The notes under the pieces: generated by a model
Seen by the model: only the letters and a program-made list of their open reading frames with translations
Database searches by the model: none
Told to the model about the DNA's origin: nothing
In this document: positions 4,675 through 46,807 of the stretch, one piece after another
Layout: every line of letters starts with the position of its first letter
Numbering within the stretch: position 1 is the stretch's first letter
From: Cystobasidiopsis lactophilus
Lineage: Eukaryota > Basidiomycota > Agaricostilbomycetes > Agaricostilbales > Chionosphaeraceae
NCBI GenBank assembly: GCA_001599975.1
Contig: BCIO01000004.1
Coordinates: forward strand, 781,434-845,433
Direction of reading: 5' to 3'
Length of the DNA stretch: 64,000 nt
Made by a program: the position numbers and the translations under genes

Positions 4675-5189
4675 GCTGGGCAAAGTCGGTCAGCCCAGAT
4701 GCAAAGGCGTTGCCAAAAAGTTTATGGCGCCGCTTTGGGCTCGCGCAGGGAAGAGCGCGGGTGAAAGGGCAGCAATAACAGCTTAACCAGTTGCCAGCGA
4801 ATAAGATGTGATCAAGAACTATGGGCTCAACATTGGGCAGCTCGGTTTATGAGGTGGTGGTCGAAGCCGGAGGGCGTCGTCGGCGATGAGGGTGGCGCGG
4901 CTCAAGTCTCGAGGTGGCGACTGCCGGTTCGCTTTGACTGGCTCATTTAATTCTCATGCGATCTGAAACTGCGGTTCCCCGACTGCTGGGTCTCTCATCA
5001 AAGAGGCCGGATTGATGGGCAGTGGCGAAGGGAAAGTGCGTCGGCTCAGCTCAGATGAAGGCTGCAGCAAAAAGAAGGCAGCTCGGTAGCAAAGAGCCTT
5101 GCAGAAAAGAAAGAAAAGCACAAGAGGCCGGCTCTTGGGCCTACAAAGGTTGCTAGCTTGCCGAGGAGAGTTGCGGCACTAGCTGCTCC
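4675..5189. other. Intergenic, upstream of OPA3
   Basis: No gene seen. This is the OPA3 promoter side and the 3' flank of the first orphan-family locus. It holds one copy of the GAGTGGCGACTTCCGGT-like box (4911-4931). Confidence 0.5.
4911..4931. repeat. Copy 1 of a dispersed ~17-bp box (variant)
   Basis: The sequence reads GAGGTGGCGACTGCCGGTTCG. It differs at few positions from the copies at 6518 and 9034. It lies about 240 bp upstream of the OPA3 start. Confidence 0.4.
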
Positions 5190-5523
5190 TCAGGACTGGC
5201 GCGCCCTCTGCAGCAGATCCAAGTCCTTCTTGGGAAGGTGAGGCTCCCAGTTGCAGTCCAAGAAGGTCCTGCCGGGGAATCGGCGGTGAATGTTGCCCAA
5301 GCTCGCCAAGGTCGGACGGACGAGCATGCACTCGGATCCGCCAACCTGGTGAGCAAACCAAGCGTGGCCGACTTGAGTTGATCCTTGACGTCCGTCTTTC
5401 AATGTTCCAAGGTCCACCGTTGTACATGATGACATAGCAGTTGCAGGTTCCGTTCCAAGTGAAGGGGATTCGGTTGAGCAGCACCGTGTTGAGGCCAAAG
5501 AAGTCGGAATCGAGGAAATGCAT
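5190..5523 (-). pseudogene. Orphan GHxW/RMLVxP family member, apparently broken
   Basis: I do not recognise the family from other genomes. From the ATG at 5523 the frame reads MHFLDSDFFGLN, then an open stretch ending near YVIMYNGGPW. The family core continues in the +1 frame as QVGHAWFAHQVGG, CMLVRPTLASLG and FLDCNWEPHLPK, ending at a stop at 5190. No GT-AG intron joins the two parts, so a frameshift is the simplest reading. Its start resembles those of the loci at 7479 and 11843 (MIFLGxxF). A sequencing error cannot be excluded. Confidence 0.5.
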
Positions 5524-6655
5524 GTCAACTGAGTAAATTACTGCAAGGTCTTGGTCGCAAAAGGAGAAGGAAGAGGAAGGCCTCTCAGCGCTCGCCTGGG
5601 GAGGGCAGTGCACGTCGCCTCTGAAACGTCAGGCCTGAACAAGCTTCTCGACCTCAGTAATGACATCACCACCGAGCAAAAGGAGAAACGCGCGTATGAG
5701 GACAGTCAGAAACCAGGTAGTAGAGATCGCTCAACGAAAGGGGAGAGTAGAGCCACTTCCAAACATTGTGAATTCGCAACTCGAATGAGCGGCCGGCCAG
5801 ATGCAAGAACCTCCGAGATTAGACCGAAGATCATGCATGTAACATACTCGGGAGCAAAGAGGATTGTCTCAAAGGGGGAAAAGGGATATGGGCCAGCTCT
5901 TGGTAACCAACTTTCACCGCAAGGTTTCAAGAGAAAGCTGGACACGCGAGAAGCGAGCACTCGTCCGCCTTCTTCAAGAGGTCCAGTGATGCAGTCCTAT
6001 AGCTAACAAGGCCAGGCTCGGGCGGAGCGTCAGGCCGATGGCCGGATCGGGATGGCCGAGGCATCAAGCGCCAACATCAAGGCCCAAGAAGCGAGTCAGG
6101 CTTCGGGGGTAGACAGGGACTTCACAAAGGCGGGCGAGACGAGAGAAGGCAAGAGGTTGAGGCTGCCGCAGGCCAAGGGAGGGCCCTGCTGCTTTCTGTT
6201 CGGATCCCTCTTCGCAAAGCCATGACCCCCTTTCATGAAATTTACATGCCATTCTACGACCCGAGCATCGTCAGAAGAGGTTTGGCTGCACTGGCACAGA
6301 AGAGGAGCAGATGGGGAAGCCCGAGCAGCTTCTTGGCCAGCCTTTCAGCTGACAAGAAGAAGTCGGCCTCCACTGGCTCTGAGCAGAAGACAATGGCCGC
6401 GGACAAACGCTTGTATGGATCATGTGGAGCTCGAAGTCGACAAGGAGACCTCGTACGTGAGTTGGACGGCGAAGTGCGAGAGGCCTGCCGCAGCGCCGTC
6501 ACGAAGCCAGCTCAGTCAGAGTGGCGACTTCCGGTTCGGTTCTCTAGCATATCTGTTTACTATGAGGCTTTGTGGATTGCAATCCGTGGTACAAGTGACG
6601 ACCAGGACTTGAAAGCTCCGACGAGTCCAAATTGAACCCGGCCAGGTGCTCCTAG
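5524..6655. other. Intergenic, about 1.1 kb without a supported gene
   Basis: Several open frames exist on the plus strand but none has a family match, splice structure or a conserved copy in the neighbouring repeats. One exact copy of the dispersed box lies at 6518-6538. Confidence 0.4.
6518..6538. repeat. Copy 2 of the dispersed ~17-bp box
   Basis: AGAGTGGCGACTTCCGGT is shared exactly with the copy at 9034, and the flanks also match for a few bases (AGCTCAG on the left). Confidence 0.5.
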
Positions 6656-7479
6656 CTAACCCAGAGCGGGCCAACGACAGTCGGAGATCACAGCGCTGGT
6701 GTGAAAGCCAAGATCTTTCACAGTCTGCAAAGGCCTAACCGTCAGAACATGACCAGAGTCATCTGTTGCTTTCCAAGTTTGACCCAGCGTGCCGACCTTG
6801 CCACTGGACTTGACGACCCAATTTCTTCCAACGAACTTCATTTCGAAGCTGGACCGATCGTTGCCACGATAGAAACTCTGAGGTAGGTAAAGCACTTGAT
6901 CGGTGCTCAGGTCGCGGCAGGCTTGTTCGTACTTCAGAGCCCATTTGTTTGACGACAAATTCTTCCACGGGAAACGGAGGCAAAGAAGGCGCAGGCTTGC
7001 AGTGTCTGGGCTAACCAGCATTCGGGTTCCTTGATGCTCTGCGAACCAAATGTGGCCAAGGCGGTCTGATTCGCCACCGTAGGTGACAGTCCAAGTCTCG
7101 TCACAGAAGCTGAGGTTGATTCTGCCGGTAGGTTTACCATGATCACCCTTTTCAAAGTGGATGGGATGAGGTCGAGCCAGGACTTGGTTGACGCCGAAGT
7201 AATATTTTTCCCAGTCACAGTCAGAGATTGCGATGCCCTCGTTGAGGCGCTGCACCATCTCCAAGCTTGGCAGAGTGGGTCTGACCAGCATCGAGGGCAT
7301 GCCAGGGCGTGAGGCTATCCAGACATGGCCAACCTTGGGCTGCTCCCCATGGCTTTAATGGTCCAAGCAAAGCCGTCAATGAAAGTGAAGAACGACTTCG
7401 TTTCCTTATTGTGCTCGAAGGCCAGGGGCGTGACAAGCACGCTCTCCGCCGCAGGAAAATCATGGCCGAGAAAGATCAT
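6656..7479 (-). CDS. Orphan GHxW/RMLVxP family member with repeated domain
   Basis: The function is unknown. An uninterrupted frame of 214 codons (7300 to 6656) holds at least two domain units. Unit A: QVLARPHPIHFEKGD, ETWTVTYGG, LGHIWFAEHQGTRMLVSPD, LCLRFPW. Unit B: QVLYLPQSFYRGND, NWVVKSSGKVGTLGQTW, VLTVRPLQTVKDLGF. Upstream, from an ATG at 7479 (MIFLGHDFPAAESVL), a further unit reads to FAWTIKAMG and resumes in another frame as KVGHVWIASRPG. No intron fits that junction. The gene may therefore start at the in-frame ATG at 7300, or be a damaged three-unit gene. No signal peptide or transmembrane helix is evident. The proteins look globular, with aromatic and charged residues. Confidence 0.5.
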
Positions 7480-8142
7480 TGAAGAGCAGGCTATTCGACG
7501 CGAAAGAGGAAATGATGGCAAAAGGCGAAGGAGGGAGACCCAGCTCGAGTTGGGTAGAAAGAGGCTGTGTACATTTTTGTTGGGGCAATTGAAGACGGCC
7601 ATGGGTGGTAATGTGCTTCATCAAGCAGTACAATGCTTGAAGCAACAAGCGCTGTAGGCAAGCGCGGACACGCGACAAGGAGTCGTAGCTCGGGTCAGCC
7701 AAAGCTCGCAAGAATTAGGCCAGCTACACCGTATTTGAGGTTATAACGAGCTCTATCGAGCCATCTACGTCACTGTGAAGATAGGGTTGGGGTCGCGGCA
7801 AGGCGGTCTTATTCGAGGAACGATGAACGGGGGAGTCAAAGAGCAGAATGCTTAGCCCCACTTTGGTCCAGCAGCATAGTACTGGACCGAGACGACTAGG
7901 GACGCACGAGGTTCTGACAAGAGCTCCTCAAGCAAGTCAGATTGGCATTCGCTGTAGGCGGTGCACTGGAACGACTGGACCCAGCCAGGCCTCAAGCGCG
8001 GCAGCAGGGCAACGAGAAGAAGGTGCTCGGGTGCAGAAGGCCATTCAAACCAAGCAGGGGAGACAAGGACAAGCAAGTGGCTGGTGGCAAGAACAGCGAG
8101 GGATGAAACAACCCCAGTTCACGAGCCCCCAGCTGTCCGAGT
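7480..8142. other. Intergenic, no supported gene
   Basis: No recognisable coding region. This is the presumed promoter side of the 6656-7479 locus and the 3' flank of the next one. Confidence 0.4.
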
Positions 8143-8478
8143 CTATGGCCCCGTAAAGTACTTCTCGATGGCAGACTTGCTCTGCGCATCGGGCAAGACT
8201 AGCATGCGGTCACCGGTCCCAGAAGGGGTCAGCGCGTACCAGGCATGTTTGAGTCGGTTGTTGTCGGACACGTTCCCACCGTCATGAATCTTCCACTGAA
8301 AACCCCGAAAGACGATATACAGATGTCCTTTCTTAGGACCAGCAGCTTCAGGGTCGTATCCTCGTTCTTCTTTCCAGTGAAACCTGATGGGAGTAGCCAA
8401 AACTTCATGGGTGCCCTCGAGTTCATAGCCGCGGAAGAAGCCCTTGGGGAAAGTCTCGATGCCAAGAGCGTTCATCAT
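8143..8478 (-). CDS. Orphan GHxW/RMLVxP family, single-domain copy
   Basis: This is an open frame of 111 codons from a true ATG at 8478 (MMNALGIETF) to a stop at 8143. The domain is complete: EVLATPIRFHWKEERGYD, GHLYIVFRGFQWKIHDGG, LKHAWYALTPSG, RMLVLPDAQSKSAIEKYF. It aligns along its whole length with each unit of the 6656-7479 locus. Two positions depart from the core: GH in GHxW is replaced by KH. It is the least damaged single copy and the best representative for structure prediction. Function is unknown, with no sign of export or membrane insertion. Confidence 0.55.
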   Translation of the reverse strand: MMNALGIETFPKGFFRGYELEGTHEVLATPIRFHWKEERGYDPEAAGPKKGHLYIVFRGFQWKIHDGGNVSDNNRLKHAWYALTPSGTGDRMLVLPDAQSKSAIEKYFTGP

Positions 8479-9244
8479 TGAATCGAGCTCCAGATGGTGG
8501 GAAGAGAAAGAGAGGGGTTCGCCACCCAAGCGCAATTTGCAGGCTGGGCTCGAACAAGGGGAGAGCGAAGCGACTTCTCTTTCGACTTTCCTTCAGAGCC
8601 CCAAGCACTTTGAAGCCCTAGCACTTTGGTGCATTGGCCAGCCGAATCGGAAGACACCGACCTTGGAAGGAGGGCAGCGAGGGGAACGAGAGATATACAG
8701 CAAGCTCCGAGCCTGAGGATTGAAGGAAGCCAACTTTGGCCGACAAGCAGTCGCCCGGTTCGGCGTGACAAGCGAGAAAACCACGTCGTATGGCCAGCAC
8801 AAGAAGATTCTTCCCAGCGAAGCCCAACAGGGGAGGGCCAGGCTGGTGTGCTGGCAACTTTCAAAATTCTTTGAAGGCGGAAGTCGGACTCGAGCTGAGG
8901 TGACAGGTGTGCAGAACAGGCGGACTGCTTGGTGATGTGCTTGAGGAAGACATGCCACATGAGATCATCCGGGTTACTAGCCCGAGAGTTGGACGTCGGC
9001 TCTTGAGCCTCTCGGCAGCGCTGAGCTCAGGGCAGAGTGGCGACTTCCGGTACTGTCTGTCGCATCCTCCTAGTCACAAGAGAAAAGCTCGTCTCAAAGG
9101 GTGACGAGGAAAATGCAGTCGGCTCAAATCACTGTCACTGAGACTTGATACATTGAAAAGCTCTGTCAAGCGGGTGGCAACGATGCAGAAGATGCACAAG
9201 CAAGAGCAGAGCTGTGCAGCATCTCGCTCGAAGGAAGAGGCTCG
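8479..9244. other. Intergenic, no supported gene
   Basis: No recognisable coding region. An exact copy of the dispersed box lies at 9034-9051, about 550 bp upstream of the start at 8478. Confidence 0.4.
9034..9051. repeat. Copy 3 of the dispersed ~17-bp box
   Basis: AGAGTGGCGACTTCCGGT is identical to the copy at 6518. The two lie at comparable places in the array, just beyond the 3' end of one locus and upstream of the next. Confidence 0.5.
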
Positions 9245-9667
9245 TTACAAGTAACAAGGATTGCCGTTCGCTCGGCTTGCGAGCGCTCTGTTGGGCAGAT
9301 GCTGCGGCTGCCCATGAATGTCCGCATCCAAATTTCCGCCGTGCTTTGTAAGCATATCCCACAGATCTTCAGACCTGGCAAGAGCGATGGGGCCGCCGTG
9401 ACCTTCGACTTTCCATTGATTTTGGGCGCGGTCTTTGCCGTCGTGTTGGAGGATAAGGTGATCCTTGCCGTCTATTTCAGCGAACAAGCCTTTCCTTTCA
9501 ACGTTCTTCCATTTGTGCTGAGGGGGCCCAGAAGGACCGGGCCGTGGGTCTTGGAATGGGCTTTGGAGATGAGGTTGTCTCTGACCAGCTGCCACCTCGT
9601 GCTGCTGCTGTTCGAACTGTCGAGCCTCCTCCGCGTTCTTGAAGTAAAGAGGCTCATTGTGAGCCAT
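9245..9667 (-). CDS. Orphan protein, WKVxG subfamily A
   Basis: An open frame of 140 codons starts at a true ATG (MAHNEPLYFKNAEEARQFEQ). The N-terminal part is hydrophilic and Gln/Pro-rich. The C-terminal half reads WKNVERKGLFAEIDGKDHLI, then NQWKVEGHGGPIALARSEDL and WDMLTKHGG. The same order (EEAxxxEQQ, a short I(N/D)GxxHxIL strand, then NxWKVxG...AL.S...L) occurs in the next locus at 10421-10786, so the two are paralogues. The WKVxG strand resembles the W(K/T)V..GG strand of the GHxW family, which suggests a distant common domain (inference). No known family is recognised. Confidence 0.5.
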   Translation of the reverse strand: MAHNEPLYFKNAEEARQFEQQQHEVAAGQRQPHLQSPFQDPRPGPSGPPQHKWKNVERKGLFAEIDGKDHLILQHDGKDRAQNQWKVEGHGGPIALARSEDLWDMLTKHGGNLDADIHGQPQHLPNRALASRANGNPCYL

Positions 9668-10420
9668 TGCGTATAACGAGGATGAAAGTCTTGATGGAAT
9701 GTGTTGGCGAAAGGAGAGGAAGAGCGGCTGAAGGCTTGGGCAGACGAGGCAGTAAGCGTCGTACTTGGACCTTGTAAGACAAGTAATCAAGGTAAGACAT
9801 GATGTCACTTTGGTAATGTTGGGGCAGAGAAAGGGTGAAGAAAAGGAAGAGCAGAAGCCACCTCCAAGCATTGTGAGGCCGAGTCGACCTAGGAGACGTC
9901 TTTGGCGCAAGGCAAGACTATCTACTACGATGCATAGAGGAATCAATCAGGCTCAGAAAGGAATGAAATGGATGGGACTGCTCGAGGAAGGAAGAAAGAC
10001 CGGAAGGCGTTCAACGTTCGCCAAGTCTCAATCTCGACGGCATCAGCCTCGCTCGGCCTTCTCACGCTGGGATAATACTTCACGCTTTCTTAGAAGGGAG
10101 AGAGCGAAAGACTTGGCCCGGCTGAACTTGAACAGTGAGGGAATGAAAGCGATCCTCGCTGTGACAAAGGGAGTGGCAAGGACAATTCTCGCGCGGAACA
10201 GAACCGGAATCAAAAGAGAATGAAGCTGGAGGCAGAGCAATGAAGGCAATGATAAATGCTCGGAAAGCACAGAGCATTGTCGTGCAATTGGGGAGGAAAA
10301 CAAGAAAAATAGGCGGTAAGCTACAAGCAAGCAACCGTCCCACTGCATCTGCAAGGAGATCATTTTAGAAGAGAAGAAACTGGGAGAGCGAAGTAGTGAC
10401 AGAAGCGGAGGTACGAAGGT
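9668..10420. other. Intergenic, purine-rich on the plus strand
   Basis: No gene seen. The stretch from about 9820 to 10420 is rich in A and G on the plus strand, which means pyrimidine-rich on the strand of the downstream orphan gene; such tracts are common in fungal promoters. Long frames here have low-complexity translations. Confidence 0.4.
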
Positions 10421-10786
10421 CTACGACTTGTTGAGAAGCTTGAGAGCCGCATTGACGGTACTGAGCGGGACGCCGGCCGGACTGGCAGCCGTACCAGTAA
10501 GCTGTGCCACAAGCGACATAGGCGAGCGAAGAGCGACACTCTCGTGGCAACCGGCGACCTTCCAGCGGTTGTCTATCTCGCTCTCACACCCCAAGATGCG
10601 ATGGGGCGAGCCGTTGATGTACGCAACGTAATGGACGCCAAGCTCCCGCTGCCACGGGTACTCAACAGAGCTGGAGGAGGTGGCCTCGCGAGGTGGGCTT
10701 TGAGTGCGCTCTCGGTTTCGCCGTGTTTGCTGCTCGAGACGCTGGGCCTCCTCTTGGGTGTAAACTCGGTCTTTGTGTTGATCCAT
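10421..10786 (-). CDS. Orphan protein, WKVxG subfamily B
   Basis: An open frame of 121 codons starts at a true ATG (MDQHKDRVYTQEEAQRLEQQ). The sequence continues with an Arg/Glu-rich linker, then GVHYVAYINGSPHRILGCES, NRWKVAGCHESVALRSPM and LVAQLTG, ending LKLLNKS. It matches the 9245-9667 protein in motif order and spacing but is diverged, so the duplication is not recent. No signal peptide, transmembrane segment or known domain is visible. It lies on the same strand as all other members of the array. Confidence 0.5.
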   Translation of the reverse strand: MDQHKDRVYTQEEAQRLEQQTRRNRERTQSPPREATSSSSVEYPWQRELGVHYVAYINGSPHRILGCESEIDNRWKVAGCHESVALRSPMSLVAQLTGTAASPAGVPLSTVNAALKLLNKS

Positions 10787-11514
10787 GATAAGAGTCGCAA
10801 TCCAAGTGGGCAGGAAAGAAAACGACGAGGAAAAGACCGGGGGTGGTGAAAGGAGAGGAAGAGGCAATTCGGTCCTTGCCCAGACCAATTGGGCCCGTCA
10901 CTGTCTCGCCCCATTGGAGACATACGCACATCGCCACAGAGTTAATACATGATGTCACTCATGTAAAAGACCACCACAAAAGGAAAGCACAAGGGCTCCA
11001 CCAGAAGGGCCAGTCGGAAGACGTTTTGCCCTCGTCTTTTGGGTAAGGCACCGTTTTACGCAAGAACAGGGCAACGCATTCTCGAGACGCACGGAAGAAT
11101 GAGGAACCAACTAAGGGGCCAAGCTAGATGCGCCATCGCGTCATTGTCCCAAGCGGACTCTGGGTGGCGACTGGCCCCTCTCCCACCCTCAGACCCAATG
11201 GCTTGATGGCCGGACAATTTGCTGAAAGCAGTCCATGGCCAGCATATACAGCCCTTTCCAATGCATCAAGGAAAGGAACAAGTCAAAAGATCAGAGTCGA
11301 TCTTGCGAGCCTCAAGATCGACCATTCCGGAATCCAGGCAAGCTCGCAGACAACACATCAGAAGAATCGACAAGCGGAATGCTTATCGCGCAAGGAAAGA
11401 GGGCTTGCTACAATGGGCGGAAGATAAAAAGGAGGGCAAAAAGACAAAGAGGCAAGGTTTCCTGGGGAGAGAGCCGTGCAAGACCCTTTTTCAAGATTCG
11501 AGCTGCCCGCTTGC
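10787..11514. other. Intergenic, no supported gene
   Basis: No recognisable coding region. A weak variant of the dispersed box (CTGGGTGGCGACTGGCC) lies near 11160, about 375 bp upstream of the start at 10786. Confidence 0.35.
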
Positions 11515-11843
11515 TTACATGGAGCGATGACGGCGGTGGTGGAGCTGAGGAGGTCTGCGGTCAGGAAGGAACGCGTCCCAGGGGCAGTCGTCGAAGCGCT
11601 CGTTGGGATAGCGGTGGCGAACTTCGGCCAAGCTCGCTTCGTCCGGCCGGACCAGCATGCGAGCTCGGCCCCCGATTCGGGTGGCAATTCAAGCGTGGCC
11701 GACCTGGTGGCTCGCTGCTCCGCCGTTCCGCCGTTTTCGACCTTCCAAAGGCCGCCGCGGATGTTAACGAAAGGCGCCCAATGGAACTCCAGTCGCTCGT
11801 GAACCACCCCGTCGACGTGGAACTCCTGCCCAAGAAAGATCAT
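11515..11843 (-). pseudogene. Orphan GHxW/RMLVxP family member, broken
   Basis: The ATG at 11843 opens MIFLGQEFHVDGVVHERLEF, then FVNIRGGLWKVENGG. This matches the start of the 7479 locus, including the bases around the ATG. The rest of the domain lies in another frame: QVGHA, then a TGA where the family has Trp, then IATRIGGRARMLVRPDEASL and FDDCPWDAFLPD, stopping at 11515. A frame change plus an in-frame stop at the conserved GHxW Trp make a functional product unlikely. Confidence 0.6.
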
Positions 11844-11995
11844 TGCTGGAGATAGGAAAAGTGCTGCTTGTGGGGGGAAGAGAGGTATTGGTGGCGAACG
11901 GAGAAGCAACAGGACGCTCTGCGCTCCCTCTTGCGAGTGGGGCGGTGTTCTTTGCTACCCTTACCTCGGTGAAACACTTGCACTGTTAGCGTTCA

Positions 11996-12349
11996 TTACC
12001 ACGGTGCAAGAACGTAGCGGGCAGTCCCATAGCACAGAATGAGAATCAGAGCAGCCAAAGCCAGCAGGGTCGGCGGCTTCTTTGGAGGTGGCCACTGATC
12101 CAACCGGCGCAGGACTCCAAGGGCGAGCGCGCGTAGGACATATAGAACAGAAGCCTCGTCAGGCAGCAAAGTCAACAGACGGGCGTGTAACAGTGAGAGG
12201 GAGTCGACCAGCTCCGTGCGTTTCAATCCTTGGGCGTTGACGGTTGTCTCGCGGACGTTCTCTTGGCACCAGATCCTTGTGAGCAAACTACGAAGCGCAT
12301 GAATAACGATAACCAGCAGCAGCAAGATCCAAGGCAAGTCGAACGCCAA
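11996..12349 (-). CDS. Possible small two-helix membrane protein (start not found)
   Basis: An open frame of about 117 codons ends at 11996. It begins with a hydrophobic helix (WILLLLVIVIHALRSLL) and ends with another (LLALAALILILCYGTARYVL) after a KKPP turn. The middle is soluble (RTELVDSLSLLHARLLTLLP). The frame contains no Met codon at all. The codon at its open edge is TTG and the frame stays open upstream into the VPS23 promoter and first exon, so a start would need an upstream exon or a non-AUG codon. The hydrophobic ends argue for a real protein; the missing start argues against. Confidence 0.3.
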   Translation of the reverse strand: MAFDLPWILLLLVIVIHALRSLLTRIWCQENVRETTVNAQGLKRTELVDSLSLLHARLLTLLPDEASVLYVLRALALGVLRRLDQWPPPKKPPTLLALAALILILCYGTARYVLAPW

Positions 12350-12381: not shown

Positions 12382-14180
12382 ATGGCCGGACATCAAGACG
12401 CCGTGCTCAACTGGCTCCGGGGCGTCTTGGGCTCAGTATGTCCCATGTCACAAGCTCACTGTGACATGTCTAAGCATGAGTGGCAGTACCCAAACCGAGA
12501 AGTGGTGTACAACCATGTCGACGCCCTGCTCCACCGCTTCCCGACCCTCTCGCCCCGGACTGCCTCTTACAGTATGCTCCTTGTCTCTATCACAGAGTAG
12601 CACAAGTGACAGGGTTGGGATCTAGCACACGACGACGGGCGAACGCAAGTCTTACTCTGCCTGAACGGGACGCTGCCCATCAGCTTCAAAGGCAAGACGT
12701 ACCACATCCCTTTAGCCTTTTGGGTGCCGTTCGAGTACCCAGCAATGCCGCCCATCGCTTATGTCACGCCTACGTCAGCCATGTTGGTCAGGCCGAGCAA
12801 CCAGGTCGACGTGTCTGGGAGGTGTTCGGGCGAGTACATTAGAGCTTGGGAAGCCAAAGCAGAGGTCCGTCCCTTTCACCTGACTTTCAAGCTTTGTGAG
12901 GAATCCATGGTTGATAATGTGTGGCGAAAAGGGACGCAGTTTGGTCGGCTTGGCAGAGTTCCTCCAGCCGCTCTTCGAAAAGGTGCCGCCCGTGTACGCC
13001 AAGCCTCCAACAGCGTCCACCTCCTCCCCGACCTCACCTAACAACCCAACTTCACCCACCTCGTCACTCAAAGGCCCACCAGGAGCTCGACCTGCCCCAC
13101 CTCGACCTCCGTCCACTTCTCAACAGCCCACTCTGCCTTCTAGACCTGACCGAGCCCCTTCTTCCCCTCGCCCTCCACTTCCCCCTACTCCAACCATAGG
13201 AGGTTCTCCCGCTCGACTTTCCACTTCCCTCTTACCCCAACCCAACCACATCGGCTTCCAACCTCCTCCTCCTCCCGCCCTACCTAGGCCTCAAGATATC
13301 TTCCCAACTCCCCAGAAAGCCAACTTACCGCCCCCCGACATCCCACCTCATAGACCTACTTTACCTTACCCCTCTACCCAACCCGCCCTCACTCAATCCC
13401 CTCCCATCCTCTCCCCTAAATCACCTGTCAACCTCCTAGACTCCGAAGACGCCACATTCAACATTGAATCCCTAACAGGTGGTCCCAAACGCCCTCTAAA
13501 CCCAGAAACGCTGCAGCTCCGCTCTCAGCTCTACCTCAAGCTCACTCAGGCATTACAAGTAGCGACTTCTCAAACTCAATTCGACCTGGCCAATTTAGAA
13601 GCTTTGAAGTCCGACTTGAACAAGGGCGGGCCGGCGATAGAGGACGAGATGGCGAGGTTGAGGACGGTGAGGGATTTGTGCTTGCATGTGGGGAAAAGGT
13701 ATGAGGAGGTGGTTGGGAAAGTGAGGGAGAACATTGCCCTTTTGAATGGGAAAAAGGTGGATGAGGAGGAGGTGTTGTGTTCGACCACGGTGGTTTATAA
13801 TCAGTATGTCACTCTTTTTTGATTTGGTTGGGATGAGGAAAAGGCTAATAGGGGAAGGGTGTGGCAAGGTTGATCGAGTTGATTGCGGAAGACGCGGCTA
13901 TAGAAGACACCATCTACCAGCTCGGCCGGGGCTTGAACAACGACAGCGCGCGGATCGACTTGGNNNNNNNNNNNNNNNNNNNNNNNNNNNNNNNNNNNNN
14001 NNNNNNNNNNNNNNNNNNNNNNNNNNNNNNNNNNNNNNNNNNNNNNNNNNNNNNNNNNNNNNNNNNNTCGTGGATCTAATTGAATGGTGTAAACAGAGAG
14101 TGAGGGCTTTGGCCAGGGAGCAGTTCTTCAAGCGCGCGCTGATCAACAAGATCCTCCTCCACCTCGCTTTGGCCTCTTGA
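12382..14180 (+). CDS. VPS23: ESCRT-I subunit Vps23 (TSG101 homologue), with assembly gap
   Basis: The ESCRT-I subunit binds ubiquitinated cargo at endosomes during multivesicular body sorting. The UEV domain starts MAGHQDAVLNWLRGVLGS, joins YPNREVVYNHVDALL, then YTHDDGRTQVLLCLNGTLP and the IPLAFWVPFEYPAMPPIAYV stretch. A long Pro-rich linker follows, then a coiled coil (MARLRTVRDLCLHVGKRYEE) and the steadiness box (LIELIAEDAAIEDTIYQLGR, later ALAREQFFKRALI). Exons: 12382-12435, 12487-12571, 12626-12864, 12932-13803, 13869 into the N run (13964-14067), and a last exon from about 14086 to 14180. The missing bases fall inside the steadiness box and probably include an intron. Family call is firm. 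Confidence 0.93.
13964..14067. other. Assembly gap of 104 N
   Basis: The bases are unknown. The gap interrupts VPS23 between the codons for GLNNDSARIDL and the final exon. Confidence 0.99.
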
Positions 14181-39804: not shown

Positions 39805-40830
39805 TCCAGATGCCAAGAAAGGTGCGCTCTTGGGTTTTCACGCTATCAACCTCCTCCTTGATGAAAGAACCCTGACATTCACAGCACCGTCCTTCATTCA
39901 GCGTCAAATTGCCAAGCTTCTCGCCCCATCAATGACCAATTTGACGCTGGACGAGCGTGGTTCGCACAGAAGCATGCCTGCCAATGCGTAGCCCAAAGCC
40001 ACCGCACTGGTACACTCAGGTCGAAATACTATGGGTCAAGCCATGATCTCAAGCGAAGAAGGCACTGGGGTCACGCTTCTCAGACCGCAAGGCTCACCCG
40101 GTTACAACCTCTTCAGAAGGGTGCGCGCTCTTCCACACCCAATCAACACAAATGACCTGACGGTTGAGGTTTATCATGCCACAGGGGATGGCCATGCGCA
40201 GGCTACGAGGCAGCTTGGCACTGTGGAGCACGGTGGCGGGCCGACCTTCTCGAGATATGAGGTTCATCTCCTCCTCTTTCGAGAGCGAAGTCGTTGGCTG
40301 AGAGTTTGAGCAGACGTCATGTACAAGGTTCCTACGATTCGGGGTCTGAAGAGGTCTGGGACAAAAAACCGGGCGGCAGGCGGAAATCTCGCGCACCATC
40401 GAAACGTGAAGCCCCTGAGCTCAGTGCAATCGTGCAATAGTTTCTGCTACCATAAAGAGGCGCCCACGCCACCCACAACTTGATCCATGGTGCCCACTGA
40501 CCCCTGTTCCGCCATCTGGGCGGCTCGAGCTCGGTTGCTCTGGGGCAGCCGTCTTCACCTAGGCTCTCCCTTCCCATCTCAAATCCATCGGTGTGCGTTC
40601 TTTGTAGCTTCGTCATTGATTCTTTCGGCTGCCCCGTCGGAAGTTCCTGTGCTCTTGTCTGGCTGCTCTGGCGCTTTTGAGTGACTCCTGGCGAATTGGC
40701 GGCCAAAGCGAGTTTGCCATCCTGGGGATCTTTGAAGTATGCCTTTGTCTGGATCTAATTGCACCATTGCTGACCAGTGACTGCTAGGTAATTGTCCAAA
40801 GCCTGGTGGCAAAGCAGTCCCACATCAAAA
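39805..40830. other. About 1 kb without a supported gene
   Basis: Only short, motif-free frames. It probably holds the ITFG1 3' end and the promoter of the first F-box-like gene. Confidence 0.4.
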
Positions 40831-42159
40831 ATGGTCCTGATCACCGACCTCCCTTACGACATCCTTGAACGCATTGCTGGCCACCTAGATGGCACTCCGA
40901 AAATCAGCCTTTGGCGCCCAAACGCCACTTCACCAGCCCTAGCAACGCCAGTAACTTCGCCATTTCCTCACAGCAACGACATTGTTACAGCGCGTGTCCA
41001 CCGAGCTCTTTACGACATCTTCAACCCTCTCTTTTGGCAGAAGCTAGCAGCCCATATCGATGAGGAACCTCTTTCTCTTTCCGACCCTGGCATTCTCTTA
41101 GCCCAGTGGCTCGTCGACCGGCAGAGGCCTCTTCAGCACGTCCGCCACGTCAAGATCAGTCTTCGTGGGACTCCCGGCCAGGAAGCGCCCTTTTCATCGC
41201 TGGCCACCGTGGGCGATCTGTTGTCCTCACCTTCGCTCAAACGGCAGCAGTTGGATCTGAGCATGGATGTCTCCTCGTTTTCGAGTGAGGGCATTCAGCG
41301 CCTGGTGGAAAGTGAAGCATGGCGATGGGATCAGCTGGTGGACCTCAAGATTGCTTATTGCCGCCCTCACCATCAGCCCCTGGTCTTGGATCAATTCCCT
41401 CGGTTGCGCAAGTTGGCAGTTTCGTTCTCAGAATGTACCATCCTTTTCAATAAGCAAACCTACATCTTTGGCGCGCTTGACAACGGACTCTGGCACCTCA
41501 AAGACGGCAAATTGCTGGTGGCAGGACCGCTCCGCTTAACCTTTACAGACGAGCACCCGCTACTTGGACGTGCCGATTGGCCACGACTTCTGCAGGCAGC
41601 CTGCCAAGCCCATCCCGACAGCTCGGTCGACCTATACCTGACAGGGACGCCCACTGAAGATGATCATCTCCGTCCAGATTGGCGCCAAGTCGTGGCGGCC
41701 CTCCCAGTATCGACCCAAAGGGCCCGCTTCGAGTTCGACTGGGAGCTCGCAAGCCTCGACAATTTGCGCTTCTCGAATTTTGAGACGTGGTCGCCCCTGT
41801 GTCGGCTTTCAAAGCTGCGCTTCTTGGTTATCGAATTTGTCACGTATGACGAAGAGGATCTTCCCGAATCCGACACCTTCTCTAACGCCGGCTGCCTCTT
41901 GATCGAGACTTTGGAACTCCCTCTCCTTCAAATTCTCCGCGTCTCTTACGAGAGCCCTTTACCCCTTCCGCACCAGAAACTCCTCGCCCGATCGATGACC
42001 ACTATGCTGCAGCAGACACCCTCCTCTGTGCCGTCTTTACAGAAAGTGACCTTATCTATACTCGACAGTGAAGATTGGGGGTACTGGCACCAACTGAACG
42101 AGCTCCGCGAGGACGCTGTGGCGCGGGGGATCGAGGTTGCGGTCGAAGTGAGAGGGTAG
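40831..42159 (+). CDS. F-box-like protein 1
   Basis: The start MVLITDLPYDILERIAGHL fits a degenerate F-box (LPxxILxxI), the Skp1-binding module of SCF ubiquitin ligases. The rest (about 440 residues in one exon) is Leu-rich and resembles the LRR-like body of fungal F-box proteins: RLRKLAVSFSEC, LVDLKIAYC, LRFLVIEFVTYDE and LLIETLELPLLQILRV. It is a paralogue of the gene at 45317-46807: both share WQ/WNQLV(D/E)L, the CT(I/L)L...Y(I/M)(F/L)G block, W(R/S)QVVAALP and the NAGCLL(I/L) block. Substrate is unknown. Confidence 0.65.
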   Translation: MVLITDLPYDILERIAGHLDGTPKISLWRPNATSPALATPVTSPFPHSNDIVTARVHRALYDIFNPLFWQKLAAHIDEEPLSLSDPGILLAQWLVDRQRPLQHVRHVKISLRGTPGQEAPFSSLATVGDLLSSPSLKRQQLDLSMDVSSFSSEGIQRLVESEAWRWDQLVDLKIAYCRPHHQPLVLDQFPRLRKLAVSFSECTILFNKQTYIFGALDNGLWHLKDGKLLVAGPLRLTFTDEHPLLGRADWPRLLQAACQAHPDSSVDLYLTGTPTEDDHLRPDWRQVVAALPVSTQRARFEFDWELASLDNLRFSNFETWSPLCRLSKLRFLVIEFVTYDEEDLPESDTFSNAGCLLIETLELPLLQILRVSYESPLPLPHQKLLARSMTTMLQQTPSSVPSLQKVTLSILDSEDWGYWHQLNELREDAVARGIEVAVEVRG

Positions 42160-45316: not shown

Positions 45317-46807
45317 ATGGCCCTCACCCTCACGGACCTGCCTCTGGAGGTCCTCGAAACCATCGCCAGCGACCTGTGGGGCATACCGCATCTCCTCATT
45401 TGGCCAACTGCCGATGAAGCCACTGGACACGCTTCGGATGAAGATTCGGAAGGTGATTGGCCGGAGCAAGCGAAGTCGATCATGCAATATGGCACGGACA
45501 TCAGGGCAGCAGCCGTCTGTCGCGTTCTCTATCAAGCTTTCAACCCCGTCTTCTGGAAGAGCTTCGCCGTTCGCATCAGCAAATACCACCTTTCAAACCA
45601 TCACAATCCAAAGGATGGCATCGCCTTTTCCACCATCGCTGAAAGTTTTCTCGACCTCCAACGACCTCTGCGACACGTCCAGCACGTCACTTTCGCTCCC
45701 GCTGCTGATACCTTCATGCAGCCCTTTCTAGAGACGTTTTCTCGGATCTGCTTTGTTCAGTTTCGATTGACAAGAGACCGATAGACGTGCGCCTGGATCT
45801 AACCTACTTCAAACCGAAAAAGATCCAGACCTTTTTTTCAAGCGGGGATTGGGACTGGAACCAGCTGGTGGAACTTCACATCGACTTTGGTGGCAAATTC
45901 TCCGCGCCATTCGATTTGGATCTCTTTCCCCGACTTCGGAAAGTCAAGGTTGCTTACACCCAATGTACGCTCTTACATCAAAATCGCGTCTACATGCTGG
46001 GCCCATTGTGCGTGGCTACGTGGCTTGTCGGGCGACAAGCACTCTTTCTGGAAGACGAGTTTCTGCTGCATTTCGCCGATTACCTTGGGCTGTGTCAACG
46101 AGAGGACAGGCAGCGTATTCTTCAAGACATGGGCAGAGCTCATCCAGAGTCCTCTGTGTCGGTCGCATTCTACACGTCGTTCACCAACGACGCCTCTCGT
46201 CGTTTCGGTTGGAGTCAAGTCGTGGCCGCTCTGCCTTTAGCGATGCATGAGTTCAGCATCACGATGCAGTATGACTCCGGCGACCTGAACACTCTTCGGT
46301 TTTCCGAGGTCGACGGCTGGTCGCAATTTGCCCGCTTCACCAACTTGGCTCATCTGTATGTCGAAATCGATGCCATCCATGTACCAATTGCGCCGGCCGA
46401 TACTCCACCTTTCAGTTTCGGCACCCCGCTCCCGCCGAACGCCGGCTGCTTGCTCTTGAATTCTTTGAACGCTCCGACCTTGCGATGTTTGGCCCTCACC
46501 CTTAATTCACGATTGCCACCCGAGCACGAGCAGCTCTTCACCCAGTCTATGTTGGCAATGTTGACCCAGAAGCCTTGTCTCGTGCCGGCTTTGCAGGAGC
46601 TGCATTTTGATCTGCGCGAGGAGGTGGAGTGGAGGGATTGGCAGGGATTGCAAGACCTTCGGGTGGTCGCTGAGAGGCGAGGTATCGGGGTTAGATGGAA
46701 TTTTTCATGGCCGGCGGGCACTGAGGTGTGTTTGCTGTTGGTTTGTTTGCGCTGACTGCACTGAAGTGGCGACTACCTTGATGCAGCACACGAGGCTGCG
46801 GGACTGA
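45317..46807 (+). CDS. F-box-like protein 2 (paralogue; frame change or intron)
   Basis: The start MALTLTDLPLEVLETIASDL matches F-box-like protein 1. The frame opened there stops at 45782, while homology continues in the next frame from about 45732 (RDVFSDLLCSVSIDKRPIDV). Either the gene carries a frameshift, or a 46-nt intron (45686-45731, GTCACT...TCTAG) joins QHVQH-type sequence to RDVFSDLL, at the cost of about 20 residues present in copy 1. A 3' intron (46726-46786) adds the tail HTRLRD. Shared blocks: NQLVELHIDF, LFPRLRKVKVAYTQCTLL, WSQVVAALPLA and PNAGCLLLNSLNAPTL. Confidence 0.55.

What the first reader, a model, noticed from the sequence alone, without database searches (positions are those of the whole stretch)
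5190..11843. Undescribed small-protein family with a GHxW...RMLVxP domain in a same-strand array
Four loci (5190-5523, 6656-7479, 8143-8478, 11515-11843) share a domain of about 85-95 residues. Its pattern is (Q/E)VL..P...F, then (F/W).W.V..GG, (L/V)GHxWxA, RMLVxP...SL and a final FP..W. The 6656 locus carries the domain at least twice in one frame. I know no named family with this pattern. Array, strand bias and decay resemble a fast birth-and-death family of lineage-specific function.
Basis: partly seen in the sequence, partly recalled or inferred. Interest (0 to 1): 0.75.

Follow-up and report, generated by a model that had tools for sequence, protein, structure and literature searches.

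The report
Partly decayed tandem orphan-gene array
Six small neighbouring genes, probably in a fungus, look like products of repeated local duplication; four share a protein domain that matched nothing named in the libraries searched, and several copies are broken, as is usual for fast-changing orphan gene families.

Summary
Four minus-strand loci share one domain of about 85-95 residues; 6656 carries three units, the first interrupted. A profile of three intact units finds the C half of 5190 independently (E 7.5e-6), and DNA similarity among 5190, 6656 and 11515 spans whole units (z 10-38). Pfam, NCBIfam and PDB sequence searches gave nothing significant, nor did Foldseek with a fair model (pLDDT 79). 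A and B proteins are not significantly alike, but B9248 shares its 5' flank with A5190 and its 3' flank with A6656 (0 of 3000 controls); 10424 is tied in through B9248. One 15-nt element precedes 5 of 6 ATGs. So this is best read as one array whose coding parts diverged more than some flanks. Three of four A loci contain a frame change; the closest pair has pN/pS 0.85, not distinguishable from neutral, the other nine pairs 0.51-0.75. Function is inferred only. Lineage restriction is untested: no fungal genomes could be searched.

The parts
5190..5523 (-). A locus, one domain unit; its N and C halves lie in different frames (frame change in the linker): broken as read
6656..7479 (-). A locus with three tandem units: unit 1 7211-7479 (frame change in the linker), unit 2 6935-7216, unit 3 6659-6934; units 2-3 open in a 214-codon ORF 6656-7300
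8143..8478 (-). A locus, one unit, intact 111-codon ORF, lacks the C-terminal DCxW stretch
11515..11843 (-). A locus, one unit; frame change in the linker and an in-frame TGA at the W of GHxW: broken
9245..9667 (-). B gene, intact 140-codon ORF inside the array; 5' flank similar to A5190, 3' flank similar to A6656
10421..10786 (-). B gene, intact 121-codon ORF, 31% identical to the other B protein; 5' flank similar to B9248
5553..5567 (-). 5' element TCTCCKTTYGCSACC upstream of 5190
7514..7528 (-). 5' element (2 mismatches) upstream of 6656
9703..9717 (-). 5' element (1 mismatch) upstream of B 9248
10842..10856 (-). 5' element (1 mismatch) upstream of B 10424
11890..11904 (-). 5' element upstream of 11515
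5751..5771 (-). 21-nt upstream block shared with 9856-9876
9856..9876 (-). 21-nt upstream block shared with 5751-5771
6518..6534 (-). 3' flank block CCGGAAGTCGCCACTCT, identical at 9034-9050
9034..9050 (-). 3' flank block CCGGAAGTCGCCACTCT
4912..4927 (-). similar copy of the 3' flank block downstream of 5190

Best explanation
Repeated local duplication of one small gene, with flanking DNA, made a same-strand array of six loci in a eukaryotic (probably fungal) genome. The product is a small protein of one to three copies of a beta-meander-plus-helix domain, with no long hydrophobic N-terminal segment by eye, so probably intracellular. Shown: the shared A domain and its duplication, flanks shared by B9248 with two A loci and with B10424, the frame breaks, and weak constraint on codons in most pairs. 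Inferred: that A and B are one family whose coding parts diverged past recognition (about 70%; lowered from 75% in my draft because only B9248, not B10424, shares flanks with A loci directly); that the intact genes 8143, 9248 and 10424 are expressed (about 50%); and that the domain is a binding module in a fast-evolving, recognition-type role such as conflict with a virus, mobile element or competitor (about 20%). At least 5190, 11515 and unit 1 of 6656 look like decayed or decaying copies.
For: Shared domain. DNA similarity. Flanks: 5' A5190/B9248 score 50, 3' A6656/B9248 score 70, 5' B9248/B10424 score 66, 5' A5190/A11515 score 56, each reached by 0 of 3000 random window segments and 0 of 3000 dinucleotide shuffles. 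5' element upstream of 5 of 6 array loci and at 3 places elsewhere, chance mean 1.15 in the window; pattern chosen after inspection. Coding signal: in the DNA alignment of five units, mismatches at codon positions 1/2/3 are 384/765, 338/756 and 471/754. By codon usage the claimed frame is best of the three minus-strand frames in 9 of 10 pieces and best of six in 5 of 10. Decay: frame changes in 3 loci plus a stop in one; pN/pS 0.85 in the closest pair. Model of unit 2: pLDDT 79.2, pTM 0.71, five strands, then two helices.
Against: A and B proteins are not significantly alike: hhalign probability 0.3%. A-profile scores of the two B proteins were reached by 83 of 1516 to 1229 of 1671 scored shuffles; B-profile scores of eight A pieces by 11 of 1227 (best) to 1687 of 1767. 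Of 30 flank pairs compared, 25 were reached by at least one of 300 random segments; only the five best went, and one of those (3' A5190/A8143) was reached by 6 of 3000 shuffles. B10424 has no such match to an A locus. 8143 has no 5' element. Shared flanks could come from recombination between unrelated neighbours. Codon usage is only modestly coding-like: 6 to 133 of 654 comparison ORFs, which include real exons, score as high. The five AlphaFold models range from pLDDT 60.7 to 79.2. No transcription data and no relatives from other species.
Confidence: 0.5

Rival explanations
1. The whole array is a relic: an orphan family that has lost its role, all copies drifting, with intact ORFs left by chance or recency.
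For: Three of four A loci contain a frame change; the closest pair diverges near-neutrally (pN/pS 0.85; codon-position mismatches 0.43/0.41/0.48); codon usage is weak.
Against: Third-position excess over the alignment as a whole; pN/pS 0.51-0.75 in nine of ten pairs, though this can be past constraint; three whole ORFs (8143, 9248, 10424) of 111-140 codons are open.
Confidence: 0.27
2. The frame changes are not decay: they are errors of a draft assembly, or recoding (ribosomal frameshifting) at the linker, and the A copies make full proteins.
For: All three breaks fall in the same short linker between W.V..GG and GHxW, and both halves stay open and keep the motif; the window has an assembly gap at 13964-14067.
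Against: The direction of the frame change is not the same in all three (read); 11515 also has an in-frame stop at the conserved W; units 2, 3 and 8143 read through the linker in one frame; near-neutral divergence of 5190/11515.
Confidence: 0.13
3. The array is a cluster of effector-like proteins directed at a host or competitor.
For: Clustered, diverging, same-strand orphan genes with shared 5' DNA resemble effector clusters of fungi (recalled, not from a call).
Against: No long hydrophobic N-terminal segment is seen by eye (no predictor was available); 6656 is multi-domain; the organism and its life style are unknown.
Confidence: 0.1

Closest known systems
Tandem birth-and-death multigene families (general kind)
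   Same: Same-strand array, intact and broken copies side by side, variable number of domain units per gene, some shared flanks
   Different: The protein has no significant match in Pfam, NCBIfam, PHROGs or the PDB by sequence
Clustered effector gene families of smut fungi (recalled; no paper opened)
   Same: Small clustered diverging genes
   Different: No signal segment seen by eye; organism unknown; membership not claimed
DdrB single-stranded-DNA-binding fold (best Foldseek row, 4hqb_E)
   Same: 60 alignment columns with the model
   Different: E 0.28, probability 0.38, TM 0.30 on the query: not significant

Membership tests
Any named protein domain family (Pfam-A, NCBIfam) | Profile match above cut-off | tested here: not met
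   Pfam: 0 families at E<=10 for 6 of 6 queries (the broken loci 5190 and 11515 in one frame each); NCBIfam: 0 for 4 of 4
Known fold such as PH or lectin | Significant structural match of the domain | tested here: inconclusive
Tandem birth-and-death multigene family | Paralogues adjacent and related by duplication | tested here: met
   For the A loci:
Tandem birth-and-death multigene family | Mixture of intact and inactivated copies | tested here: met
   Open: 8143, 9248, 10424 and units 2-3 of 6656; broken: 5190, 11515, unit 1 of 6656
Tandem birth-and-death multigene family | Copy-number turnover between species or strains | not testable with these tools
   No genome held for the window and no fungal collection
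A and B as one protein family | Significant protein similarity | tested here: not met
   hhalign and shuffled-profile tests
A and B as one duplication array | Homologous flanking DNA | tested here: met
   Met for B9248 with A5190 (5') and A6656 (3'); not seen directly for B10424, which matches B9248
Secreted effector cluster | N-terminal secretion signal | tested here: inconclusive
   None seen by eye in the N-termini; no predictor available

The most novel reading that the evidence does not exclude
A and B are one gene family in which the protein has been rewritten beyond recognition while parts of the promoter and 3' flank of the duplication unit persist: a signature of strong diversifying selection on an intracellular recognition domain of a new fold, with the linker before GHxW as a hot spot of length and frame change.
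Probability: 0.2. Interest if true: 0.6.

Novelty: new member of a known kind. Interest (0 to 1): 0.36.

Why it matters
It adds an unnamed domain and a compact array in which flanking DNA hints at a kinship that the proteins no longer show. If the genes are active, the array is a testable case of coding sequence outrunning its flanking DNA. If they are relics, it shows how an orphan array decays.

Tried and rejected
Intron at the linker instead of a frame break: rejected, because the homologous codons are contiguous there in 8143 and in units 2 and 3. Further A or B copies elsewhere in the window: none at significance. A-B kinship by protein profile: not established. Relatives in viral contigs (for A; 62 for B), in prokaryote genomes (A only) and in phages (the 6656 protein only): none. 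These searches use short exact peptide patterns or tblastn and would miss distant relatives. RNA families: 0 at the gathering threshold. tRNAs: 0. B profile against the PDB: one row at E 0.5, not significant. Fold search of the B model (pLDDT 62.1): 0 of 56 matches with E<=0.001. Paper searches: five terms on lineage-specific arrays in basidiomycetes, at least 4 of 5: 1 paper; six terms on smut and orphan clusters, at least 4 of 6: 29 papers, 20 listed; 'GHxW': 5 papers, none biological by title; six terms, at least 5: 1 paper. Only listings and abstract starts were seen; no paper was opened. None listed appears by title or abstract start to describe this domain; that is weak evidence, since a motif is rarely printed in this form. 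The chance that three breaks share one linker (about 0.02-0.03) is a rough hand estimate, not from a call.
Full report
Where it lies. Of ten long ORFs scanned in Pfam, four match: an N-terminal proline methyltransferase, an ITFG1 C2 domain, an amino-acid permease and an isochorismatase fragment. Of ten more, one has weak MFS rows below cut-off. The first two families are eukaryotic (recalled). That the organism is a fungus and has introns is an inference from gene types and from conserved genes lying in open pieces; no call tests it. The window's own genome is not held, so nothing can be said on copy number elsewhere. The window is a draft with one N run at 13964-14067.

The observation. Six-frame translation shows the four loci as described, all on the minus strand. 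A profile of three intact units (8143; 6935-7216; 6659-6934) finds the C half of 5190 at E 7.5e-6, and, below the inclusion line, the C half of 11515 at 0.025 and the N half of 6656 unit 1 at 0.033; the next of 1621 ORFs is at 0.24. The N halves of 5190 and 11515 were not found by that profile (E 31 and 14), so their place rests on DNA similarity. The best local DNA alignments between 5190, 6656 and 11515 run through the whole unit, with z 38, 10.4 and 10.2. A profile that includes all pieces finds seven ORFs at E<=2e-9, which is by construction. 8143 is similar to 6656 as protein (BLASTP E 2e-7) but not as DNA to 6656 or 11515 (z about 0).

The domain. The consensus, read by me, is (M.FLG..F)...VL..P..F ... 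F.G..W.V..GG....(L/V)GHxW.A......RMLV.P...SL ... (F/Y)P....DCxW. Locus 6656 has three such units. AlphaFold2 on unit 2 with 9 rows gives pLDDT 79.2 and pTM 0.71 for the best of five models (the others 73.8 to 60.7), with strands at 25-28, 34-42, 45-55, 59-66 and 69-73 and helices at 77-86 and 96-104. Of 415 PDB matches none has E<=0.001; the first row is 4hqb (E 0.28, TM 0.30). Of 644 viral-model matches none has E<=0.001. Pfam (0 for 6 of 6 queries) and NCBIfam (0 for 4 of 4) gave nothing. The PDB by sequence gave nothing for the 6656 protein and the three-unit profile and one row at E 1.7 for the six-row profile, not significant. PHROGs gave one row at E 0.17.

Two same-strand ORFs lie between the A loci: 9248-9667 (140 codons) and 10424-10786 (121 codons). 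They resemble each other (31% identity; BLASTP E 7e-6). Their proteins are not significantly like A: the lowest shuffle fractions were 11 of 1227, 23 of 1511 and 25 of 1059 for three of eight A pieces against the B profile, and the other five were unremarkable (2000 shuffles each were made, and unscored ones are left out of these counts). The B model is poor (pLDDT 62.1) but has four strands followed by a helix in its better part, which is compatible with A and proves nothing. The flanking DNA is more telling. Of 30 flank pairs (15 at each end), five were reached by none of 300 random segments in either direction: 5' A5190/B9248, 5' A5190/A11515, 5' B9248/B10424, 3' A6656/B9248 and 3' A5190/A8143. 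Retested with 3000 random segments and 3000 dinucleotide shuffles, the first four stay at 0 and 0; the last has 0 and 6. The remaining 25 pairs, among them each pairing of B10424 with an A locus, do not stand out. A 21-nt upstream block occurs only at 5751 and 9856, and a 17-nt 3' block is identical at 6518 and 9034. The pattern TCTCCKTTYGCSACC with up to 2 mismatches occurs 8 times in the window (chance mean 1.15): five of these lie 30-70 nt upstream of the ATG of 5190, 6656, 9248, 10424 and 11515, on their strand; the others are at 125, 15208 and 37946, and 8143 lacks it. These three patterns were chosen after seeing the sequences, so their chance figures flatter them; the alignment controls do not have that fault. 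So B9248 is tied to two A loci and to B10424 by flanks, and the six loci are best read as one array in which coding sequence has diverged more than some of its flanks.

Constraint and decay. In the DNA alignment of five units, mismatch rates at codon positions 1, 2 and 3 are 0.50, 0.45 and 0.62 (384/765, 338/756, 471/754; ten pairs, not independent; the linker and 122 out-of-phase columns were left out). So the units were under protein-level constraint for part of their history. The closest pair, 5190/11515, shows 0.43, 0.41 and 0.48. For ten pairs of five units pN/pS is 0.51-0.85; nine have a 95% interval below 1, and 5190/11515 has 0.85 (0.61-1.26). Synonymous sites are near saturation in several pairs, so the ratios are rough. 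Codon usage puts the claimed frame best of the three minus-strand frames in 9 of 10 pieces and best of six in 5 of 10. Three units (5190, unit 1 of 6656, 11515) change frame in the same short linker, and 11515 also has a stop at the conserved W. Open A units exist (8143; units 2 and 3 of 6656). Why three breaks share one linker is unexplained: an indel-prone loop, a partly shared ancestral event, sequence error and recoding cannot be separated here.

How it most likely works. The A units start at an ATG shared by homology in three loci and show no long hydrophobic segment by eye, so an intracellular beta-domain protein, repeated up to three times in one chain, is the simplest reading. Binding of a partner is inferred from the multi-unit design. 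A recognition role in a conflict is inferred from the rate of change and is uncertain. The relic reading is the main rival.

Novelty. The domain matches nothing named in the libraries searched. Orphan arrays of this sort are a well-known kind (recalled), and no fungal collection was on hand to show how narrow the family is. The flank-based kinship of A and B is the most interesting part.

Noticed in passing
40792-42159 and 45787-46755, + strand: Two large ORFs about 3.6 kb apart are paralogues (35% identity over 302 residues, E 1e-55) with no Pfam hit at E<=0.01: a second local duplication in the window.
   Followed up: partly
linkers within 5190-5523, 7211-7479 and 11515-11843, - strand: Three A units change reading frame in the same short linker, not in the same direction in all.
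   Followed up: partly
11996-12349, - strand: A 117-codon ORF with hydrophobic N- and C-terminal stretches (by eye) sits just upstream of 11515 and overlaps the 300-nt 5' flank used; no Pfam hit.
   Followed up: no
9798-9809 and 10948-10959, - strand: AGTGACATCATG (a CRE-like core, name recalled) is identical upstream of both B genes; 5190 has a similar TGATGTCAT in its 5' flank. With 2 mismatches allowed, the window count (5) is at chance (4.52).
   Followed up: partly
13964-14067: Run of N: assembly gap.
   Followed up: no
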